Shown one piece after another: positions 1 through 7,640 of a stretch of 7,640 bases of DNA. The number at the start of each line of letters is the position of its first letter. The stretch's first letter is position 1. The translations under genes were made by a program, and so were the position numbers. A model generated the notes under the pieces. The model searched no databases. It was not told the origin of the DNA and saw only the letters and a program-made list of their open reading frames with translations. Origin of the DNA: Elusimicrobiota bacterium. GTDB taxonomy: Bacteria; Elusimicrobiota; Elusimicrobia; UBA1565; UBA9628. The stretch covers positions 1-7,640 of the forward strand of contig JAHFCD010000090.1 of the NCBI GenBank assembly GCA_023249695.1, read 5' to 3'.

Positions 1-2156
1 TTCGCCTCGTTGCCCTCGGGCGACTTGTGAACGGTCTGCGTCGGTTTGCTGAGCTGCTGCTTGACCCAGCGCAGGCCGCCGAGATAGACGAAGCCCATCG
101 CGAACAAAGTGAGCGTGATGATCTTCATCGGCGCGAGCGCGCCCAAGGTCAGCGCGAGCGCCGTGCCGGGCATCGAGTGATGGAACAGCCACGCGAACGC
201 GAGGCCGCCCGCGCCGGCGGCCATCACCTCGACGAAGGTCATCAGGCTGTAGATGTCGTCGGCGTGGGGCGCCGCCTTCGGGTCGTTCTTGATCTCGGTC
301 TGCAGCAGGGCGCGCATGCGCGAGCGCAGCGGCTGGAGCATCAGCTTCATCATGAACACGGCCGGGATCGCGAGGGCGAGCGACGGCACGAGCCACAGCC
401 CGATCGAGGGCACGAAAGCGAGCGCGGCGATCGCGGTCAGGCCGGCCAGCACCTTGTAGGTGCCGTGCTTCTTCTGAAGAGCCTGGATGCGCTTCATCAG
501 GAACATCGAGGCGACGAGGCCGCCGGCGGTGATCGCGGACAGCAGCAGCCCGTTGCCGAAGGCGCCGACCTTTAAAATATCGATGGCGAAGGTCGGCAGG
601 ACCACGGCGAAGAGCGCGTCCTCGACGAAGTTCTCCATCGTCGCCATCGCCGAGCGCGCGAGGATGGCCTTGTTGCCGATGATGATCTTGGCCGTCGCCC
701 AATTGCGGCGCGGCACGTCCAACAGGATGCGCCCGAAGGTCTTCAGCGCGCCGATCAGGCGCCCGATGTAATTCTTAAAGCCGTCCCACGGGGCCGAGGC
801 CATGTCGCCGACCGTGCTCACTTTGGTCGCGTATATATAGGAAACGACGCCCATCAGGGCCGCGAACACGGCGAAGCCCGCCCCCGCGCCGATGCCGGCG
901 CCAAAGCGCGCGTCGATCCAGTCCATCGGCAGGCCGATCAGCGCGGGCACGACCAGCATCATCCCGTAGTAGATGAAGTCGTAGATGTAGCCGGCCTTCT
1001 CGATCTTGTGGTCGGTGGACTTCTGGTCGGCGCCCTTGAAGATCTTGGCCGCGCCGCCGGTGTCGATGTCGACGAGATGGTTGTGCGCGACGATGAGGGA
1101 GTTCACGCCGACGAGCACGAGGAAGGCGGCCCAGGGCAGGCCGCCGAACAAGGCCAGGACGCCGATCGAGCCGAACAGCAGGGCCCGCCCGCCGGCCGCG
1201 CCGACGAGGATGCGCTTCATCGGGGTCTTGCTGACGACCGCGCCGGCGAACAGCGAGGCGCCGCCGAACACCCAGTAGTGGACCATGCGCGCCACGCCGG
1301 TCATCGCCGCGTCGCCGGTGAGCGCGCTGACGAGCAGCGGCAGGGACGCGAGGTACACGGAGATCGCGAGGAGGAAAACCGCCTGGCCCGCGATGTAGGA
1401 TTTCTCGCTCTTGTTGAACTCGGAGAGATCGAACGTGGATTTGACGCGCTGCCACAGGCCGGGTTTGGCGACGGGAGCGGCGGCCGCCGGGACCTCGGCG
1501 ACGGTGGATTCGGTCGAGGGCGCGAAGCGCTTAAGCCCCGAGCGAAGGGCCGCGGGACCGGCGCGGCCCGCGACGGAGCCGAGCTCGCCGCGCGAAGCGC
1601 CGTTCTCGTAGACCCCGTTCAGCGCGAGCGTCGCGTCGCCGTTCTTGACGCCTTCCAAAACCGGCTTCGCCGCGGCCGACAGCGCGGCGACCTGCTTCGA
1701 CGCCGCGGACTGACCGCCCGGGGCGCCGGTCTTCGCGGCGGGCGCCAGCGCGGCGGGAACGAGAGCCGCGGCCGTCTTTCCCGGGATGGCGGCGGGAGCG
1801 AGCCGCGTTCCACTCAGAGCCGCCGGCGCGGCGAGCGCGGCGGCGGGCGCCGCGTTGGCGATCGTCGCCGGCGTCAGGGAGAGCGCGAGCGCGGGATTGG
1901 CCGCCGGCATGAGCGCCGGCGCGGCGCCGACGGGACCGAGACCGGCGTTGAGGCCCAGGGACTGAACGGGCAGGACGAGGGGCGCGGCGAGGCCGGCGGC
2001 GCCGGCGCCGGAATTGACCGAGCTCGCGGCGTCGCCGCTGGCGCCCGTCGCCGCGCCGCTCTGGCCCACCGTCTGCGCGAACGCCTGATAGGCGGGCGCT
2101 CCCGGGGAGAGCAGGATGACAATGACGGCGAGCGCGGAGGCGAGGGGTCGCTTCAC
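1..2156 (-). CDS. MFS-like multi-pass membrane protein with signal sequence and long Ala-rich N-terminal extension (3' end outside window)
   Basis: The frame is open from a GTG at 2156 to the window edge (718 full codons), so the C-terminus is missing. Residues 2-28 form a signal sequence: KR, then a hydrophobic core, then a likely cleavage after AFA (residues 25-27). Residues about 29-235 are low complexity, rich in Ala, Pro and Gly, with repeated APAAL/PAA-type units. From about 254 onward I count roughly twelve hydrophobic segments. Six lie at 254-280, 290-308, 315-338, 340-360, 391-412 and 420-442. A charged linker (443-500) follows, then about six more to residue 695. This 6+loop+6 plan, and the TM2-TM3 loop with SKTPMKR (309-315), suggest the major facilitator superfamily. 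The substrate cannot be read. The signal sequence plus extension is unusual for MFS. The GTG start is chosen because a -35/-10 promoter ends six bases before it and no better in-frame start lies upstream. Membrane protein: near certain. MFS: moderately sure. Confidence 0.75.
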   Translation of the reverse strand, partial: MKRPLASALAVIVILLSPGAPAYQAFAQTVGQSGAATGASGDAASSVNSGAGAAGLAAPLVLPVQSLGLNAGLGPVGAAPALMPAANPALALSLTPATIANAAPAAALAAPAALSGTRLAPAAIPGKTAAALVPAALAPAAKTGAPGGQSAASKQVAALSAAAKPVLEGVKNGDATLALNGVYENGASRGELGSVAGRAGPAALRSGLKRFAPSTESTVAEVPAAAAPVAKPGLWQRVKSTFDLSEFNKSEKSYIAGQAVFLLAISVYLASLPLLVSALTGDAAMTGVARMVHYWVFGGASLFAGAVVSKTPMKRILVGAAGGRALLFGSIGVLALFGGLPWAAFLVLVGVNSLIVAHNHLVDIDTGGAAKIFKGADQKSTDHKIEKAGYIYDFIYYGMMLVVPALIGLPMDWIDARFGAGIGAGAGFAVFAALMGVVSYIYATKVSTVGDMASAPWDGFKNYIGRLIGALKTFGRILLDVPRRNWATAKIIIGNKAILARSAMATMENFVEDALFAVVLPTFAIDILKVGAFGNGLLLSAITAGGLVASMFLMKRIQALQKKHGTYKVLAGLTAIAALAFVPSIGLWLVPSLALAIPAVFMMKLMLQPLRSRMRALLQTEIKNDPKAAPHADDIYSLMTFVEVMAAGAGGLAFAWLFHHSMPGTALALTLGALAPMKIITLTLFAMGFVYLGGLRWVKQQLSKPTQTVHKSPEGNEA

Positions 2157-2162
2157 AATGGG

Positions 2163-2191
2163 AGTATAGGCCCGGAACCCGTTATTGTCGA
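2163..2191 (-). promoter_or_regulatory. Promoter of the MFS-like gene, placed for a leaderless mRNA
   Basis: On the minus strand TCGACA (2191-2186) and TATACT (2168-2163) are separated by exactly 17 bases. Each is a close match to the housekeeping-sigma consensus. Six bases separate the -10 from the GTG at 2156, so transcription should start at or within a base or two of the start codon. No Shine-Dalgarno sequence is present. This is the best-formed promoter in the window. Confidence 0.75.
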
Positions 2192-2198
2192 GGGGTCA

Positions 2199-2215
2199 GG
2201 GGGCCTACGGCCCCC
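2199..2215. repeat. Perfect GC-rich hairpin between the prcB-like and MFS-like genes
   Basis: GGGGGCC and GGCCCCC form a 7-bp perfect stem around a TAC loop. It lies 18 bp past the stop of the prcB-like gene and 7 bp upstream of the -35 of the MFS-like gene. It could end transcription of the former, but no T-run follows on the minus strand, so a classical intrinsic terminator is not supported. Part of it (2200-2211) is the same 12-mer found at 2824-2835. Confidence 0.5.
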
Positions 2216-2233
2216 AGGGCCCAGCGGCCTAGA

Positions 2234-2758
2234 TCAGCGGCCGTCGAACGACGGCAGGGCTTCGAGCAGGGCGCGGACCTTGGAGTCGTCGCGCGGGTTC
2301 TTCGGAGCCTTCGTCTTCTCGGGAATGGACATCGTGCCGTTCGCTTCGAAGGCGACGGTGGCGGCCTTGCGCACCTTGACCATCGCGAAAGGCCGGCACA
2401 TCACCGCGGCCGCGAAAGGCTTGGAGGCGGGGCGGACTTCCTTATAAAAGACGTTGAGGCGGTTCGAGTCGATCATGTCGTTCTGGACGACGATCTCGAT
2501 CTTCACGCCGCCGTTCTGCGTCTCGCCGAGGAACACCGCGACGACGCTTTCCTTCGAAAAGTCCACGGCCGGAACGGGCGCGCTGGCGTCGTGCTCTTTC
2601 CAGACCTTTTCCCACGCGGCCGAATCGGTCACGGCGACCGCGCGGCGCTCCGCGATCCGGCTGTGCTGCCCTTCGAGCTTCTCCCACGATCCGACCTGGG
2701 CGGAGGCGGCGACGGAGAGGAGCGCGGCGGCGATCACGGCGAGAATGGGTTTGATCAT
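2234..2758 (-). CDS. Exported PrcB-like domain protein
   Basis: The product has 174 residues. Residues 1-20 form a classical signal peptide (MIKP, hydrophobic core, cleavage after ASA before QV), so the mature protein is exported. The mature part resembles the PrcB C-terminal domain: Trp at 49 and 53, then VDFSKESVVAVFLGE (65-79), an NGG turn (82-84), alternating beta-strand residues, and YKEVRP (105-110) followed by a Pro-containing strand (CRPFAMVKV, 121-129). PrcB is known as a lipoprotein partner of the dentilisin protease complex of Treponema denticola, but the domain occurs widely in single exported proteins of unknown role. No catalytic residues are evident and no subtilisin-type partner is in view, so a function in protease assembly is not claimed. 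The tail (146-160) is Lys/Pro-rich. The ATG at 2758 is fixed by the signal peptide and by a -10 box six bases upstream. Confidence 0.8.
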   Translation of the reverse strand: MIKPILAVIAAALLSVAASAQVGSWEKLEGQHSRIAERRAVAVTDSAAWEKVWKEHDASAPVPAVDFSKESVVAVFLGETQNGGVKIEIVVQNDMIDSNRLNVFYKEVRPASKPFAAAVMCRPFAMVKVRKAATVAFEANGTMSIPEKTKAPKNPRDDSKVRALLEALPSFDGR

Positions 2759-2764
2759 GCTTCA

Positions 2765-2770
2765 ATCCTA
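2765..2770 (-). promoter_or_regulatory. -10 box of the prcB-like gene (leaderless spacing)
   Basis: Reading the minus strand, TAGGAT is followed by six bases (TGAAGC) and then the ATG at 2758. No recognisable -35 lies 16-18 bp upstream and there is no Shine-Dalgarno sequence. Alone this hexamer would be weak. Its support comes from the identical spacing at three neighbouring genes. Confidence 0.5.
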
Positions 2771-2794
2771 CCAAGATGACCCCCTTTTCCCTGT

Positions 2795-2861
2795 GGGCCG
2801 CGGGGTCCAAATCGGCCCGCCAAGGGGCCTACGGCGAACCGGGCCCCCTGTCCTAGGCGCC
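2795..2861. repeat. Cluster of GC-rich inverted repeats in the divergent intergenic region
   Basis: Three overlapping potential stems lie between the divergent prcB-like and ceramidase-like genes. GGGCCG (2795-2800) pairs with CGGCCC (2813-2818). GGGGCC (2824-2829) pairs with GGCCCC (2842-2847). GGGGCCTA (2824-2831) pairs with TAGGCGCC (2854-2861) with one mismatch. The last is followed by eight T (2862-2869), which on the plus strand looks like an intrinsic terminator. However, no plus-strand gene is seen upstream that would need one. The arms could instead be protein-binding sites or a dispersed intergenic repeat. Confidence 0.4.
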
Positions 2862-2872
2862 TTTTTTTTCGG

Positions 2873-2878
2873 TACAGT
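2873..2878 (+). promoter_or_regulatory. -10 box of the ceramidase-like gene (leaderless spacing)
   Basis: TACAGT is followed by GTCGGC and then the GTG start at 2885. A T8 tract (2862-2869) lies just upstream. No clear -35 is visible at 16-18 bp and no Shine-Dalgarno sequence is present. Confidence 0.55.
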
Positions 2879-2884
2879 GTCGGC

Positions 2885-3631
2885 GTGGACCCGCGCCTCG
2901 TGCCGCCCCTGCCCGCCGGCTCCCCGTGGAGCGGGTGGGCCCTGCCCGACATCAAGCATTGCGAGGCCAACCTCGGCGGCTGGATCACCGCCCCGGCGAA
3001 CACCTGGTCGAACCTGGCCTACATCGGCGTCGGGCTGTGGATCATCAACCGCGCTTCGACGCGGCGCGCGCTGTCGGCCGGAGGCCTCGGGCCGGTCTCG
3101 ATCGCGGTCGGCGTCACCTCCTTCGCCTTCCACGCGTCCTACACCTTCGCGGGCCAGGTCTGCGACTACGCGGGGATGTTCCTCCTCATGGGCTGGGCGC
3201 TCGCCCGCGGCCTCAAGCGCGCGGGCTTCCTTCATGAGACCCAGGCGCTGCGCTTCTGGGGCGCCCTGTTCGCCTCGAGCCTCGCCGCGCTGTTCGCCTT
3301 CCGCGCCCTGGGCTGGGGCATCCAGACGATCATGATCGTCCAAGCGCTGGCCCTCGCCGCCCTGGAGATCCGCCTCATGCTCGTCAAGCGCGACGCTCCC
3401 TCCTATGCCTCGTTCTGGCTGATGCAGTTCCTGCTGATCGCCGCGTATGCGTGCTGGCATCTCGACCACGCGGATTTCGCCTGCCGTCCCGACGATCATT
3501 GGCTCCAGCTGCACGCGACCTGGCACGTCGTCACGGCCGGCGCCTTCGTCGCCGGCTGGCGCTTTCACGAAGGGATCGACGCGCTCGCCGCGCCACGGAT
3601 AAACCCGCCCGTGACGCGCGCGCCGTGCTAA
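2885..3631 (+). CDS. CREST-superfamily / alkaline-ceramidase-like integral membrane hydrolase
   Basis: The product has 248 residues and about seven hydrophobic segments, the usual size and topology for alkaline ceramidase relatives. The metal-site signature is complete. Ser79 and His83 lie in SFAFH, Asp94 falls eleven residues after that His (CDY), and His210 and His214 lie in LHATWH. These spacings (S+4H, H+11D, H+4H) are those of the zinc site of human ACER3 (Ser77, His81, Asp92, His217, His221). The N-terminus carries HCEAN (25-29) and NTWSNLAY (39-46), matching the DWCE-N...NT-SN segment of ceramidases. The Asp of that motif is not conserved, so calcium binding may differ. The family cleaves amide bonds of lipids such as ceramides in the membrane. 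The substrate here is inferred only. GTG 2885 is chosen because the -10 box places transcription start on it. The first in-frame ATG comes too late, after the conserved HCE/NTWSN segment. The next gene begins 9 bp after the stop. Confidence 0.85.
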   Translation: MDPRLVPPLPAGSPWSGWALPDIKHCEANLGGWITAPANTWSNLAYIGVGLWIINRASTRRALSAGGLGPVSIAVGVTSFAFHASYTFAGQVCDYAGMFLLMGWALARGLKRAGFLHETQALRFWGALFASSLAALFAFRALGWGIQTIMIVQALALAALEIRLMLVKRDAPSYASFWLMQFLLIAAYACWHLDHADFACRPDDHWLQLHATWHVVTAGAFVAGWRFHEGIDALAAPRINPPVTRAPC

Positions 3632-3634
3632 AAT
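3629..3634 (+). promoter_or_regulatory. -10 box of the lysozyme-like gene, overlapping the upstream stop codon
   Basis: TAAAAT is followed by GGGCTC and then the ATG at 3641. The first three bases are the TAA stop of the ceramidase-like gene. No Shine-Dalgarno sequence lies in the 9-bp gap, so the downstream gene may have its own leaderless transcript in addition to any readthrough. No clear -35 is present. Confidence 0.55.
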
Positions 3635-3640
3635 GGGCTC

Positions 3641-4423
3641 ATGAACCGAGCCCTGCTCTGCGCCGCGCTGTTCGCCGCCGCGTCATGCGCCCACGCCGGA
3701 ATCCGCCTGAGCGACGCGGAAGCGGAGGCGGTCGGCCGCAAGATCTGGAAGAACGAGAGCGGCGCGACCATCGACGGGCTCACGCATTGGAACAAGGGCG
3801 AGAACTTCGCCTCGCTGGGCATCGGCCATTTCATCTGGTACAAGGCCGGCGAGCCCGGCCCGTTCACGGAGAGCTTTCCCGGCCTGCTCGACGCCATCGG
3901 CGCCTCGGGAAGGACCTTGCCCGCCTGGCTCTCGGGCCGGCCGACCTGCCCCTGGTCCGACCGGGACGCCTTCTTCGCCGACTTCCGCGGCGCCCGCATG
4001 AACGAGCTGCGCAGCCTGCTCGCCGGGACGATCGGCGTCCAGGCCCGCTACGCGGCCGACCGCCTCGAGGGCGCGCTCGAGAAGATCCTCGCCGCCGCGC
4101 CGGCCGCCGAGAGGCCCGCGCTTCAGGCCCGCTTCGACCGCGTCGCCTCCGTGCCCAACGGCGTCTACGCGCTGATGGATTACGTGAACTTCAAGGGCGA
4201 GGGCATCAACCCCTCCGAGCGCTATAACGGCGCGGGCTGGGGCCTGCTCCAAGTTCTCCAGGGGATGGCGGACGCGGCGCCGGGACAACCCTCCGTCAAA
4301 GCCTTCGCCGCGGCCGCCGACGAGGCGCTCACCCGTCGCGTGGCCAACAGCCCCCCCGCGCGCGACGAGAACCGCTGGCTTCCCGGCTGGCGCAAGCGCC
4401 TGCGCACCTACCTCGACAACTGA
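3641..4423 (+). CDS. Exported lysozyme-like protein (putative peptidoglycan hydrolase)
   Basis: The product has 260 residues. Residues 1-19 form a signal peptide (MNR, hydrophobic core, cleavage after AHA). The AASC at 13-16 is a poor lipobox, so a soluble periplasmic protein is more likely than a lipoprotein. I recognise the body as a conserved family of exported bacterial proteins, usually left as hypothetical. The N-terminal part has IWKNESG (35-41), THWNKGENF (48-56), SLGIGHFIWY (58-67) and PFTESFP (74-80). A Glu followed about twenty residues later by GIGH resembles the catalytic Glu and T-x-GxGH strand of T4-type lysozymes, so Glu39 is the candidate catalytic acid. Further conserved-looking blocks are DYVNFKGEG (180-188), GWGLLQVL (199-206) and RWLPGWRKR (245-253). 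Peptidoglycan cleavage is inference from this motif and the export signal. It lies in the same direction as the upstream membrane hydrolase and the downstream kinase. Confidence 0.75.
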   Translation: MNRALLCAALFAAASCAHAGIRLSDAEAEAVGRKIWKNESGATIDGLTHWNKGENFASLGIGHFIWYKAGEPGPFTESFPGLLDAIGASGRTLPAWLSGRPTCPWSDRDAFFADFRGARMNELRSLLAGTIGVQARYAADRLEGALEKILAAAPAAERPALQARFDRVASVPNGVYALMDYVNFKGEGINPSERYNGAGWGLLQVLQGMADAAPGQPSVKAFAAAADEALTRRVANSPPARDENRWLPGWRKRLRTYLDN

Positions 4424-4477: not shown

Positions 4478-4483
4478 TACAAT
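4478..4483 (+). promoter_or_regulatory. Candidate -10 box of the histidine kinase gene
   Basis: TACAAT ends 19 bp before the ATG at 4503. A start about seven bases downstream, at A4491, would give a leader of roughly 12 nt with no Shine-Dalgarno sequence. CTGACA (4450-4455) resembles a -35, but the 22-bp spacing is too long for a standard promoter. Confidence 0.4.
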
Positions 4484-4502
4484 CGTCTGGATTCGAGCCC
4501 CG

Positions 4503-6530
4503 ATGCCCACGATACCGCGCCCCCGCATACTCGTCGTCAGCTCCAGCGCCCGTTTGCAGGCGCGGATCATCGACCAGCTCATCGAACGCTACGAGCTGGT
4601 CGGCGGCCGCGCCGCCGAGCGCCTGCAGAACATCGCGCTGGCGGTGGTCGACGAAAGAGACTGGCTGAGCAGCGACACGCCGAAGATGCCCTGGCCGGTC
4701 GTCGTCGTGCGGACGCGGGGAGCGGGCCCCCTGCCCACGGCCGACGCGAGCGTGCGGGCCGAGTTCGAGCCCGAGGAGCTGACCGAGCGCATCGAGACGC
4801 ACCTCGCGCTCGCCCGCCTCCGACAAAGCGCGGCGAACAAGGAGAGCGCGCTCGTCGACCAGGCCGGACGAGCGCGAGAGCGCCTGACCTTCCTCGTCTC
4901 CGCCGCCGAGAAGATGGCGAACTCCGTGAGCCTCGGGGAGACTTTGGGCCATCTCTGCGGGGCCGCGGTGCCCCGCCTCGCCCAATGGTGCACGATCACC
5001 TTGCGCGAGAACGGGCGGCTCGCGCCCCCAGTCGTCGCGCACGAGTCGCCCGCCAAGGTCGGGCTCCTCGAGGAGCTCGGCCGCCTCAATTTCCAGGAAG
5101 GAGACCGCCGCCACCCGGTCCACCGGGCGCTCTCCTCCGGGCGGGCGGAGTTCGTCGCGAAGGCTCCGGAGTCGTTCATCACCCGGCTGGGCGGCTCCGA
5201 GCGGCACTCCGAACTGCTGCGGGAGCTGGGCGTCGGCGCCTTCATGTGCGTGCCGCTGCGCTCGCGCGGCAAGACGCTCGGCGCGATGATGCTCGGCGCC
5301 GACGCCGGCTGGCGCCCCCTCTGCCGCACCGACCTCGTGCTCGCCGAGCAGCTCGCGACGCGGGCCGGCGCCGCGATCGAGCGGGCCCAGCTCCATCATA
5401 AGGTCGAGGCCGAGCTGTCCGAGCGCCAGCGCGTCGAGACCGCCCTGCTCCGCCAGGAGGCGGATCACACCCTGATCCTGGACACGGTCCGGGCGATGAT
5501 CTGGTACAAGGACGCCGGCAACCGGGTCCTGCGCTGCAACCGCGCGGCCGCGCAGTCGGTCGGGAAGCCGGTCTCGGAGATCGAGGGCCGCCGCGTCGAG
5601 GAATTTTTTCCCGCGGCGCGCGCGCGCGCCTATCACCTCAACGATCTCGCCGTCATCGCCTCGGGGCAGGCCAAGATCGGCGAGCTCGAGGAGCTCAAGC
5701 TTCGCGGCGGAGTGAAACGCTGGATGCAGCGCGACACGCTCCCCTACCGCAACGACCTGGGCGCCATCGTCGGCGTCGTCGTCATCGCCGTCGACGTGAC
5801 CGAGCGCAAGCGCGCCGAGGACCTCGCGGTCGCCAAGGAGCGGGCGGAGCGCGAGTTCGTGGCGAACGTCTCGCACGAGTTCCGCACGCCCGTCGCCGCG
5901 ATCAAGGGCTTCGCGCAGACGCTCCGGGACGGCGCCTGGCGCGACGACGCCGAGCGGACGCGCTTCCTGAACATCATCGAGACGAACGCCGACCGGCTCG
6001 ACGCGCTCGTCGGCGACCTGCTCACGATGTCCAAGCTCGAAGGCAGCGAGCCGCGAGCGTCGGTCGCGACCGCGGTGCAGCGCGTCGCGCTCGACTGCGC
6101 GGCGAAGCTCGAGTCCCGCGCCAAGCGCAAGCGGCTGAACGTGTACGTCGCGGTGACGCGCGGCCTGCGCGTGAAGATGGAGCCGGAGCACCTGGCCCAG
6201 GCGCTCGAGCACCTGCTCGACAACGCGATCAAGTTCACGCCGCCCGGCGGCTGGATCCGCCTCGGCGCGCGCGCGTCGAAGCGGAAAGTGCTGATCGTCG
6301 TCGAGGACAGCGGCATCGGAATTCCGTCCACCCATCTGCCGCGCGTCTTCGACCGCTTCTTCCGCGTCATGAAGGGCGCGCAGCCCGGCAGCCCGGGCGT
6401 CGGCCTGCACATGGTCAAGAAGCTCGTCGAGGCCTACGGCGGGAGCGCCTCGGTTCGCAGCCGCCTCGCCCGCGGCTCGGCCTTCCGCCTCACGCTTCCC
6501 GCCGCCGCGAGGCGCGCGCCTAAAAAATAA
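4503..6530 (+). CDS. Sensor histidine kinase: degenerate receiver-GAF-PAS-HisKA-HATPase
   Basis: The product has 675 residues with no signal peptide or membrane helix, so it is a cytoplasmic sensor. Residues 8-108 look like a receiver fold (RILVVSSS, AVVDERD, VVVVRTR), but the usual acidic pair is replaced by Ser and the conserved Lys is absent, so it is probably not phosphorylated. A short helix leads to a GAF-like domain (about 125-297), a coiled linker (298-320) and a PAS domain (about 321-435, ending AVDVTERKRAE). The kinase core has the H-box SHEFRTP with His458, the N-box HLLDNAIKF with Asn574, the G1 box VEDSGIGIP (Asp602), an F-box FDRFFRV, and the G2 box GVGLHMVKK (632-640). All the residues needed for ATP binding and autophosphorylation are present. 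No response regulator is adjacent, so it is an orphan within this view. The signal is unknown. ATG 4503 is the first in-frame ATG and lies just before the receiver strand. Confidence 0.92.
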   Translation: MPTIPRPRILVVSSSARLQARIIDQLIERYELVGGRAAERLQNIALAVVDERDWLSSDTPKMPWPVVVVRTRGAGPLPTADASVRAEFEPEELTERIETHLALARLRQSAANKESALVDQAGRARERLTFLVSAAEKMANSVSLGETLGHLCGAAVPRLAQWCTITLRENGRLAPPVVAHESPAKVGLLEELGRLNFQEGDRRHPVHRALSSGRAEFVAKAPESFITRLGGSERHSELLRELGVGAFMCVPLRSRGKTLGAMMLGADAGWRPLCRTDLVLAEQLATRAGAAIERAQLHHKVEAELSERQRVETALLRQEADHTLILDTVRAMIWYKDAGNRVLRCNRAAAQSVGKPVSEIEGRRVEEFFPAARARAYHLNDLAVIASGQAKIGELEELKLRGGVKRWMQRDTLPYRNDLGAIVGVVVIAVDVTERKRAEDLAVAKERAEREFVANVSHEFRTPVAAIKGFAQTLRDGAWRDDAERTRFLNIIETNADRLDALVGDLLTMSKLEGSEPRASVATAVQRVALDCAAKLESRAKRKRLNVYVAVTRGLRVKMEPEHLAQALEHLLDNAIKFTPPGGWIRLGARASKRKVLIVVEDSGIGIPSTHLPRVFDRFFRVMKGAQPGSPGVGLHMVKKLVEAYGGSASVRSRLARGSAFRLTLPAAARRAPKK

Positions 6531-6774
6531 AGATGCTGCCCAAGGTCAGCGCGGCGCCGATGATCATGTTCTTGACGTCGCCGTTCTTCTTGCCGTAGCC
6601 GAGGTACACCATCCCGGCGAGGCCCATGACGGTGCTGCCCCCCATCTTCCAGTAGGTGGCCGCGTCGGCGGTGATGGCGGGCAAGGAGGACGCCGCGACC
6701 GTCCCCGTCGAGAGGTTCTGCGCGAGCGTCGGGAGGGCGTCCTCGTTCTGGAGGAGCACCGACTTGAGGTCCAT
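6520..6774 (-). CDS. Small two-helix membrane protein, coupled to the ClpP-like gene
   Basis: The product has 84 residues. The first 40 are mildly polar (MDLKSVLLQNEDALPTLAQN onward). Two hydrophobic segments follow at about 43-60 and 68-84, joined by a short basic turn, YGKKNGDVKN (60-69). A basic turn between two helices suggests a hairpin in the inner membrane with the loop in the cytoplasm. The pattern of helix, YGKK, then helix recalls a group of small bacterial membrane proteins sometimes labelled amino acid transport protein. That name has little meaning and is not adopted here. The ATG lies 2 bp after the stop of the ClpP-like gene with no Shine-Dalgarno sequence, so translation probably depends on coupling. 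This also suggests the two products act together. Its last 11 bp overlap the 3' end of the convergent histidine kinase gene. Confidence 0.7.
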   Translation of the reverse strand: MDLKSVLLQNEDALPTLAQNLSTGTVAASSLPAITADAATYWKMGGSTVMGLAGMVYLGYGKKNGDVKNMIIGAALTLGSIFIF

Positions 6775-6776
6775 CG

Positions 6777-7640
6777 CTAGCGGTAGTACGAGTCGCGGTT
6801 GTAGATGAAATACGCGTCGGCGTGCTGGAGCCGGGGCAGGCGCACGAAGCGGTCGCCCTTCGCGTCCGACTCCTCGGCCAGGCCGAAGGCGAGCTTGGGC
6901 TTGTCCTCGAGCTTGGTCTCCGGCTCCTTGAGGATGCCGGTCTCGCGAATCTCATGCACGACGTGGTCGATCCACTTGAGCTTGACCGCCGTGTCCGCGA
7001 ACTCCTCCCAGTCGCCGTCCACGTTCTGCTTGTACATCTCGGCGGTGAACTTCTCGATGGTGGTGCCCATCTTCTTCGCGATCGGCTCGCGCAGGCGGCG
7101 GTCCCACTCCTTGAGCACGTCGAGCTGCTGCTTCTGCTGCGTGGGATTGCCGAACAGCACGCTCCAGATCTGATGGTGCAGGATCACCGCGTTCGGATAG
7201 GCGTAGGACCGCGGCGCGAGCGTGGCGATCGTCGCGGCCATGCTCGCCGCGTAGGATTTCACGACCACCTGCACCGGCGCCTTGCTCGCCTGCATCGCCT
7301 TCAAAATACGGTAGCCCTCCATCACCGAGCCGCCGGGGCTCCGGTCGATCACGAGGAAGATCGGATACTCCTCGGACTTGTTGTTGAAGTAATGGATGCG
7401 CTCGGTCACGAAGTCCGCCGTGCCGTAGACGATCGGGCCCTCGATCGGGATGCGGCGGTCGGTGATCGTCAGAACCCCGTCCTTGAACGGCTCCTTCTCG
7501 TAATCGGGCTCGCGGTTGGGCTGCTTCTTCCACGCGTCCCGCTTCTCGAGCAGCTCGAGATCCGCCTTGATGGCGACCGTCTTGTTGTCGGCGATGTCGG
7601 ACTCCTGGCGCAGCTTGCGGGACTGGAAATCGAGCTCCGC
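6777..7640 (-). CDS. ClpP-fold serine peptidase with N-terminal extension (5' end outside window)
   Basis: A continuous frame of 287 codons enters from the right edge, so the start is missing. The internal GTG at 7409 lies inside the fold and is not the start. Residues below count from the edge. Residues 1-50 are charged and helical. The ClpP-type fold begins near 56 (GVLTITDRRIPIEGPIVYG) and includes the oxyanion-hole SPGG (101-104). The nucleophile Ser133 is in YAASMAA, His156 is in LHHQ, and the likely Asp210 is in VDGDWEEF, fifteen residues before the D of WID. That is the same spacing as in ClpP. The Ser-His-Asp triad therefore appears intact. The tail (about 230-287) is charged, ends in DSYYR, and has no counterpart in ordinary ClpP. 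The family makes ring-shaped peptidases that need an ATPase partner; none is visible here. Membership of the wider ClpP/SppA/crotonase clan is firm. Housekeeping ClpP is unlikely given both extensions. A 2-bp gap joins it to a small membrane protein. Confidence 0.85.
   Translation of the reverse strand, partial: AELDFQSRKLRQESDIADNKTVAIKADLELLEKRDAWKKQPNREPDYEKEPFKDGVLTITDRRIPIEGPIVYGTADFVTERIHYFNNKSEEYPIFLVIDRSPGGSVMEGYRILKAMQASKAPVQVVVKSYAASMAATIATLAPRSYAYPNAVILHHQIWSVLFGNPTQQKQQLDVLKEWDRRLREPIAKKMGTTIEKFTAEMYKQNVDGDWEEFADTAVKLKWIDHVVHEIRETGILKEPETKLEDKPKLAFGLAEESDAKGDRFVRLPRLQHADAYFIYNRDSYYR

What the first reader, a model, noticed from the sequence alone, without database searches (positions are those of the whole stretch)
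2156..3641. Four consecutive genes with TANNNT, exactly six bases, then the start codon: a leaderless expression signature
Seen directly: TATACT+6+GTG (2156, minus), TAGGAT+6+ATG (2758, minus), TACAGT+6+GTG (2885, plus) and TAAAAT+6+ATG (3641, plus). None has a Shine-Dalgarno sequence. A -10 box at this distance puts the transcription start on or next to the first codon, as known for leaderless genes in Actinobacteria and Deinococcota. In such GC-rich DNA, four AT-type hexamers at identical spacing are unlikely by chance. It suggests the host uses leaderless translation widely, including on GTG starts, and gives a practical way to choose start codons.
Basis: partly seen in the sequence, partly recalled or inferred. 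Interest (0 to 1): 0.7.

Follow-up and report, generated by a model that had tools for sequence, protein, structure and literature searches.

The report
Leaderless gene starts in Elusimicrobiota bacterium
In this uncultured Elusimicrobiota bacterium a predicted promoter box sits exactly six bases before the start codon of four neighbouring genes, and before about a fifth of the genes predicted to begin a transcript, so their messenger RNAs likely start at the start codon itself with no ribosome-binding leader; this is a known mode of expression that our searches did not find reported in this phylum.

Summary
Confirmed and supported. In about 22% of the window's own genome, 67 of 615 starts have TANNNT at spacing 6, against 12, 13 and 25 at spacings 5, 7 and 8; internal in-frame ATG/GTG codons show 6 of 6,522. 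The signal belongs to predicted first genes (62 of 316; shuffles average 2.9) rather than operon-internal ones (4 of 290, gene 4 being one). It looks like a promoter: a TTGACA-like -35 peaks 17 bp upstream, TG extends the -10, box genes lack long Shine-Dalgarno (SD) runs. The four sites are conserved in same-genus relatives, though not in every gene-4 ortholog. Other genes use SD; the anti-SD is intact in 11 of 11 family genomes with a readable 16S end. The phylum is Elusimicrobiota; the pattern is strong in this family and weak or absent in most others sampled. Leaderless TANNNT genes are well known in Actinobacteria and Deinococcota (PMC3160421), so this is a new member of a known kind. Against: raw GTG pattern counts are not enriched, one 60-kb relative sample was weak, and no RNA data exist.

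The parts
2154..2156 (-). GTG start codon of gene 1 (3-2156, runs off the contig; Ala-rich N-terminus then what looks by eye like a transporter; no Pfam hit)
   Evidence: GTG kept in 7 of 7 same-genus genomes compared, own included
2163..2168 (-). -10 box TATACT, 6 bases before GTG 2156
   Evidence: the only sigma-70-like promoter in the window scan (10 of 12 matches; shuffles average 0.4, so weak alone); invariant in those 7 genomes
2186..2191 (-). -35 element TCGACA, 17 bp upstream of TATACT
   Evidence: invariant in those 7 genomes
2756..2758 (-). ATG start of gene 2 (2234-2758, 174 aa, no Pfam family)
2765..2770 (-). -10 box TAGGAT, 6 bases before ATG 2758
   Evidence: TANNNT at spacing 6 in 10 of the 13 best-matching loci (L238-L250, own included), as TAGGAT, TAAGAT or TATACT
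2873..2878 (+). -10 box TACAGT, 6 bases before GTG 2885
   Evidence: by hand spacing 6 in 6 and 5 in 1 of 7 same-genus genomes, own included; start codon varies GTG/ATG
2885..2887 (+). GTG start of gene 3 (2885-3631, ceramidase family PF05875)
3629..3634 (+). -10 box TAAAAT, 6 bases before ATG 3641; its TAA is the stop codon of gene 3
   Evidence: box at spacing 5-7 in 14 of 28 ortholog starts called blind, own included
3641..3643 (+). ATG start of gene 4 (3641-4423, 260 aa, no Pfam family)

Best explanation
Each of the four start codons is preceded, at exactly six bases, by a TANNNT hexamer that is most likely the -10 element of a primary-sigma (sigma-70-type) promoter, so transcription likely begins on the first base of the ATG or GTG and the mRNA is likely translated leaderless, without a Shine-Dalgarno sequence. 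Shown here: the sites, their genome-wide excess at this one spacing, their concentration in predicted first genes, the -35 at 17 bp, the TG extension, the lack of long SD runs in box genes, and conservation in relatives. Inferred: that the hexamer is bound by RNA polymerase, that the 5' end falls on the codon, and that ribosomes start on the 5'-terminal AUG/GUG (by analogy with other bacteria). The same genome keeps SD-led starts for operon-internal genes and for many first genes, so it runs a mixed system.
For: Spacing profile of 615 starts: 67 at 6, against 12 at 5, 13 at 7, 25 at 8, 11 at 9 and 1-10 elsewhere; first genes 62 of 316, operon-internal 4 of 290, internal codons 6 of 6,522, shuffles mean 2.9 and max 8 (Fisher first vs operon 1.4e-14). 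A second promoter element: at a 17-bp spacer 11 of 62 sites match TTGACA in at least 4 of 6, against 26 of 1,178 at spacers 8-14 and 21-32 (rank test 2.5e-7). TG extension in 19 of 62 against 6 of 290 in the same columns of operon-internal genes. C at -1 in 43 of 62 (109 of 208 first genes without a box, 114 of 290 operon), a pyrimidine-before-purine context that fits a start at +1 (the preference is recalled). SD run of 5 or more in 0 of 108 box genes, against 62 of 290 operon genes and 376 of 6,522 internal codons. Footprint. Family-wide ATG counts: 42 of 42 genomes have at least 1.66 times the reversed-pattern control. E. coli through the same pipeline: 0 of 80 at spacing 6.
Against: No transcript or protein data. 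The raw whole-genome count of TANNNT-6-GTG does not exceed its reversed control (147 vs 151 in the own genome; above 1 in only 4 of 42 family genomes), so the GTG case rests on gene-aware counts and on conservation. A 60-kb sample of G183 (same genus) had only 1 of 29 first genes at spacing 6 and 5 of 29 at 5-9 (Fisher 0.066 vs own), although G183's whole-genome ATG count is 478 against 126. The spacing-12 pattern is also enriched (1.03-2.10 times control), so part of the raw excess is AT-richness near starts, and in genus g2 spacing 6 exceeds spacing 12 by only 1.15-1.23 times. Most box genes lack a good -35: 18 of 62 have at least 4 of 6 matches at spacers 16-18. The box occupies much of the SD zone, so lack of SD is partly built in. 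Gene 4 is operon-class by spacing, and four same-genus gene-4 orthologs (G112, G162, G166, G169) show no box at 5-9 at the start called blind.
Confidence: 0.88

Rival explanations
1. The hexamers are true promoters but RNA polymerase usually starts one to four bases upstream of the codon, giving very short leaders rather than strictly leaderless mRNAs.
For: Boxes also occur at spacings 7-9 (12, 18 and 8 of 316 first genes); gene 4 orthologs drift between spacing 5 and 7.
Against: The mode is 6 by a wide margin; -1 is C in 43 of 62, which suits a start on the codon's purine.
Confidence: 0.08
2. The AT-rich hexamer is an unstructured or S1-type ribosome-entry patch in a longer leader, not a -10 box.
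For: AT-rich upstream signals are discussed as possible S1 sites in other phyla (PMC5397173, passages seen).
Against: Fixed T1-A2-T6 at one exact spacing, coupling to a -35 at 17 bp and to TG, and scarcity in operon-internal genes, which also need ribosome entry (4 of 290).
Confidence: 0.02
3. Chance or composition artefact: four AT-type hexamers at one spacing in GC-rich DNA, picked out by eye.
Against: Shuffles, internal codons and the E. coli control; conservation of the sites in relatives.
Confidence: 0.01

Closest known systems
TA-led (leaderless) genes of Actinobacteria and Deinococcus-Thermus (Zheng et al. 2011, PMC3160421; passages and Results parts 1-2 of 3 seen)
   Same: TANNNT about 12 bp upstream of the start in GC-rich genomes, no SD, operon-distal genes usually SD-led; their Table 2 gives average 19.2% of genes in Actinobacteria and 39.4% in Deinococcus-Thermus.
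   Different: Host phylum: the text names no Elusimicrobia (0 occurrences), though Table 2 has an unnamed 'Other Bacteria' row with 8 of 20 genomes. Here 67 of 615 starts at spacing 6 alone.
The -10-motif adjacent to ORFs in Deinococcus radiodurans (PMC12340547, passages seen)
   Same: TANNNT with a fixed spacing to the ORF and a mixed system with GGAG-led genes; that paper reports by experiment that it works as a -10 and that a -35 raises expression; a GTG example (pprI) is given.
   Different: No experiment exists here. They also scanned bacteria at large; the word Elusimicrob- is not in its text (it is not among the papers found); its supplementary figures were not seen.
Leaderless mRNAs of mycobacteria (PMC4633059, PMC3898074, passages seen)
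   Same: ATG or GTG, not TTG or CTG, start leaderless translation there; here TANNNT-6 occurs at ATG and GTG but at 0 of 23 TTG starts (too few to tell, Fisher 0.16).
   Different: M. tuberculosis showed no -35 consensus and TGN before only 7% of TANNNT motifs; here a -35 at 17 bp is visible and TG precedes 19 of 62 boxes.

Membership tests
Leaderless (TA-led) bacterial genes | -10-like TANNNT about 12 bp upstream of the start codon, above shuffled expectation | tested here: met
   62 of 316 first genes vs shuffle mean 2.9, max 8 in 200
Leaderless (TA-led) bacterial genes | No SD in the box genes | tested here: met
   SD run of 5 or more in 0 of 108 box genes; 9 of 108 have a 4-base run, partly AGGA inside TAGGAT. 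The box itself fills part of the SD zone
Leaderless (TA-led) bacterial genes | Concentrated in single or operon-proximal genes | tested here: met
   first 62 of 316, operon-internal 4 of 290 by gene spacing; the window's gene 4 is one of the 4
Leaderless (TA-led) bacterial genes | Transcription start on or within a few bases of the start codon | not testable with these tools
   needs 5'-end RNA mapping
Leaderless (TA-led) bacterial genes | Translation from a 5'-terminal AUG/GUG | not testable with these tools
   needs reporter or ribosome profiling
sigma-70-type promoter | TTGACA-like -35 at about 17 bp from the -10 | tested here: met
   as a group: highest at spacer 17, weaker at 18; 11 of 62 vs 26 of 1,178. 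Per site: found at 2186-2191 only
Bacteroidota-like loss of SD use | SD sequences absent genome-wide, or altered anti-SD | tested here: not met
   CACCTCC intact in 11 of 11 family genomes with a readable 16S end; G000 itself has no 16S in its assembly; SD peak in operon-internal genes

The most novel reading that the evidence does not exclude
One family of Elusimicrobiota runs leaderless, promoter-fused start codons as a main route for first genes, GTG included, while most of the phylum does not, and individual orthologs flip between leaderless and SD-led starts between genera; the phylum is therefore a natural record of how leaderless expression is gained and lost gene by gene.
Probability: 0.6. 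Interest if true: 0.55.

Novelty: new member of a known kind. Interest (0 to 1): 0.42.

Why it matters
It extends the predicted reach of leaderless expression to a family of an almost uncultured phylum and gives a concrete rule (TANNNT-6-RTG) for choosing start codons in its metagenome genomes, where SD-based callers may misplace N-termini. Because most sampled neighbouring families of the same phylum show little of the signal, and because orthologs of two window genes are box-led in some genera and SD-led in others, the clade can be used to study how a gene changes its mode of initiation.

Tried and rejected
Chance and composition: rejected by shuffles, internal codons and the E. coli control. 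An SD reading of TAGGAT (AGGA): rejected for gene 2 because orthologs carry TAAGAT or TATACT at the same place. Lost anti-SD: rejected. A separate explanation for spacing 8 (25 of 615 starts in the own genome): sequences were listed, no firm reading; family loci show 1 of 183. Positive controls were small: D. radiodurans MP1, 2 of 43 starts at 6 and 6 of 43 at 5-9; T. thermophilus pTT27, 4 of 52 at 6, two of them operon-internal. G065, a genome of another family (f3), had 2 of 16 first genes at spacing 6 with no peak, too few to weigh. The -1 C is not specific: it is also common in first genes without a box (109 of 208). A first simple gene caller missed gene 4 and was replaced. For gene 4 the hand-made footprint used 16 of the 30 loci fetched, chosen where a start with a box could be read, so it is biased; the blind count is 14 of 28. 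One box-led gene-4 ortholog (G182) also has a 5-base SD-like run.
Full report
What was checked. The window is the whole contig C54 of a metagenome-assembled genome of 2,965,811 bases in 587 contigs, 73% complete. The four sites are exactly as described.

Genome-wide test. Fetched contigs under 3 kb read as N, so 21 of 120 fetched loci were dropped; 99 loci plus the window, 662,577 bases or about 22% of the genome, gave 715 genes and 615 usable starts. TANNNT ends 6 bases before the start in 67 of 615, against 12 at spacing 5, 13 at 7, 25 at 8, 11 at 9 and 1-10 at other spacings. By class: divergent 35 of 144, same strand with a gap of 60 or more 13 of 99, gap 20-59 14 of 73, gap under 20 (operon-internal) 4 of 290, and one of the 9 at contig edges. 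The window's gene 4, 9 bp after gene 3, is one of the 4 operon-class cases. By codon: ATG 49 of 463, GTG 18 of 129, TTG 0 of 23. Internal in-frame ATG/GTG codons: 6 of 6,522. Dinucleotide shuffles of the 316 first-gene upstreams: mean 2.9, maximum 8 in 200. Above the background of spacings 11-29, the excess at spacings 5-9 is about 29% of first genes.

Is the hexamer a promoter? A -10 box should have company. At a spacer of exactly 17 bp, 11 of 62 sites match TTGACA in at least 4 of 6 positions, against 26 of 1,178 at spacers 8-14 and 21-32 (rank test 2.5e-7). TG precedes the box by one base in 19 of 62, against 6 of 290 in the same columns of operon-internal genes. SD runs of 5 or more occur in 0 of 108 box genes (spacings 5-9), in 62 of 290 operon-internal genes and in 45 of 208 first genes without a box; the internal-codon background is 376 of 6,522. 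The box fills part of the SD zone, so some of that lack is built in. Operon-internal genes show a GGAG/GAGG/AGGA peak at spacings 4-10. So two kinds of start coexist in one genome. In the window itself only the 2156 promoter has a recognisable -35.

Conservation of the four sites. Orthologs of genes 2, 3 and 4 were sought in 44 genomes of the family (matches in 31, 8 and 30 of 44); gene 1 was read from the same loci. All counts include the own genome. Gene 1: TCGACA-17-TATACT-6-GTG is invariant in 7 of 7 same-genus genomes, and a more distant one (G157) has TACACT-6-ATG; blind, spacing 6 in 8 of 8. Around gene 1 the flanks are fairly conserved too (11 of 18 columns from -30 to -13 invariant); for genes 2, 3 and 4 they are not (4, 2 and 0 of 18 in an ungapped comparison). 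Gene 2: TANNNT at spacing 6 in 10 of the 13 best loci, as TAGGAT, TAAGAT or TATACT; the other three (G157, G156, G160) look SD-led. Blind, 9 of 23; 10 of the other 14 are weak hits under 37% identity that may be paralogs. Gene 3: by hand spacing 6 in 6 and 5 in 1 of 7 genus genomes, the start changing between GTG and ATG; blind, 4 of 8, the rest being three genus genes called at another start and the distant G157 match. Gene 4: blind, spacing 5-7 in 14 of 28 (9 at 6); four same-genus orthologs (G112, G162, G166, G169) have no box at the called start. SD-led orthologs by the blind count: gene 2 in G157 (L248) and G160 (L250), gene 4 in G174 (L229) and G170 (L231). Leaving out matches to window proteins, other genes on the fetched family loci have the box at spacing 6 in 10 of 64 first genes and 0 of 29 operon-internal genes.

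Who and how far. The closest named rpoB is from Elusimicrobia bacterium RIFCSPHIGHO2_02_FULL_57_9, 80% identical over its best segment, so the phylum is Elusimicrobiota. In 149 genomes of the phylum, TANNNT-6-ATG over its reversed control is 1.83-2.92 in 7 of 7 genomes of this family; of 142 others none reaches 1.8 and 7 reach 1.5, median 1.10. Within the family, 42 of 42 genomes are at 1.66 or more; spacing 6 beats spacing 12 in 42 of 42, by 1.5 times or more in 28, most in the window's own genus (median 2.7) and least in g2 (1.15-1.23). No 16S was found in G000; 11 of 42 family genomes hold the 16S-end anchor and all 11 read CACCTCC.

Against. Raw TANNNT-6-GTG counts are no higher than the reversed control (147 vs 151 own; above 1 in 4 of 42). 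I think coding background swamps this count, but that is inference; GTG use rests on the gene-aware 18 of 129 and on gene 1's conserved GTG. The 60-kb G183 sample was weak (1 of 29 first genes at spacing 6, 5 of 29 at 5-9), although its whole-genome ATG count is 478 vs 126. Positive controls were small. First-gene status is predicted from gene spacing only.

Known kinds. Zheng et al. 2011 (PMC3160421; passages and Results parts 1-2 of 3) described TANNNT about 12 bp upstream as the mark of leaderless genes and list groups that have it; Elusimicrobia is not named, though an 'Other Bacteria' row is not broken down. PMC12340547 (passages) tested the motif in Deinococcus. PMC4633059 and PMC3898074 (passages) give the RTG rule and the TANNNT promoters of mycobacteria. 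Full-text searches for leaderless with Elusimicrob- found two papers: PMC10783764, whose passages place Elusimicrobia in an anti-SD class, and PMC7448276, seen only in the listing; of a wider search (459 papers) I saw the ten listed. Absence from print is claimed for this open-access library and these searches only.

Verdict. It is a clean new instance of a known mode, with phylum-level interest because the trait is graded within the phylum.

Noticed in passing
3629-3634: The stop codon TAA of gene 3 is the first half of gene 4's -10 box TAAAAT, so a stop codon doubles as promoter sequence in a tightly packed pair.
   Followed up: partly
4478-4503: Gene 5 (histidine kinase, PF00512/PF02518) has no box at spacing 6 but TACAAT 19 bases before its ATG, which would give a leader of about 13 bases without an SD.
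   Followed up: no
2167-2222 and intergenic regions of the fetched genome: GGCCTA/TAGGCC is about 5 times denser in intergenic than genic DNA (48 vs 135 counts); in the window it lies among inverted repeats. Role unknown.
   Followed up: partly
own genome, spacing 8: A second, smaller TANNNT peak at spacing 8 (25 of 615 starts) in the own genome but 1 of 183 in family loci.
   Followed up: partly
L209, L211 (gene 4 orthologs, spacing 7): An in-frame ATG overlaps the box itself (TAAAATG or TAGAATG), and the codon-usage caller takes it as the start.
   Followed up: no
G141, G061, G102, G088, G129, G082, G053: Seven genomes of other families or genera of the phylum have TANNNT-6-ATG at 1.5-1.8 times control, suggesting the trait recurs elsewhere in the phylum.
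   Followed up: no
6520-7640 (-): A ClpP-like protease gene (PF00574) followed two bases on by a small gene for an 84-aa protein, hydrophobic by eye.
   Followed up: no
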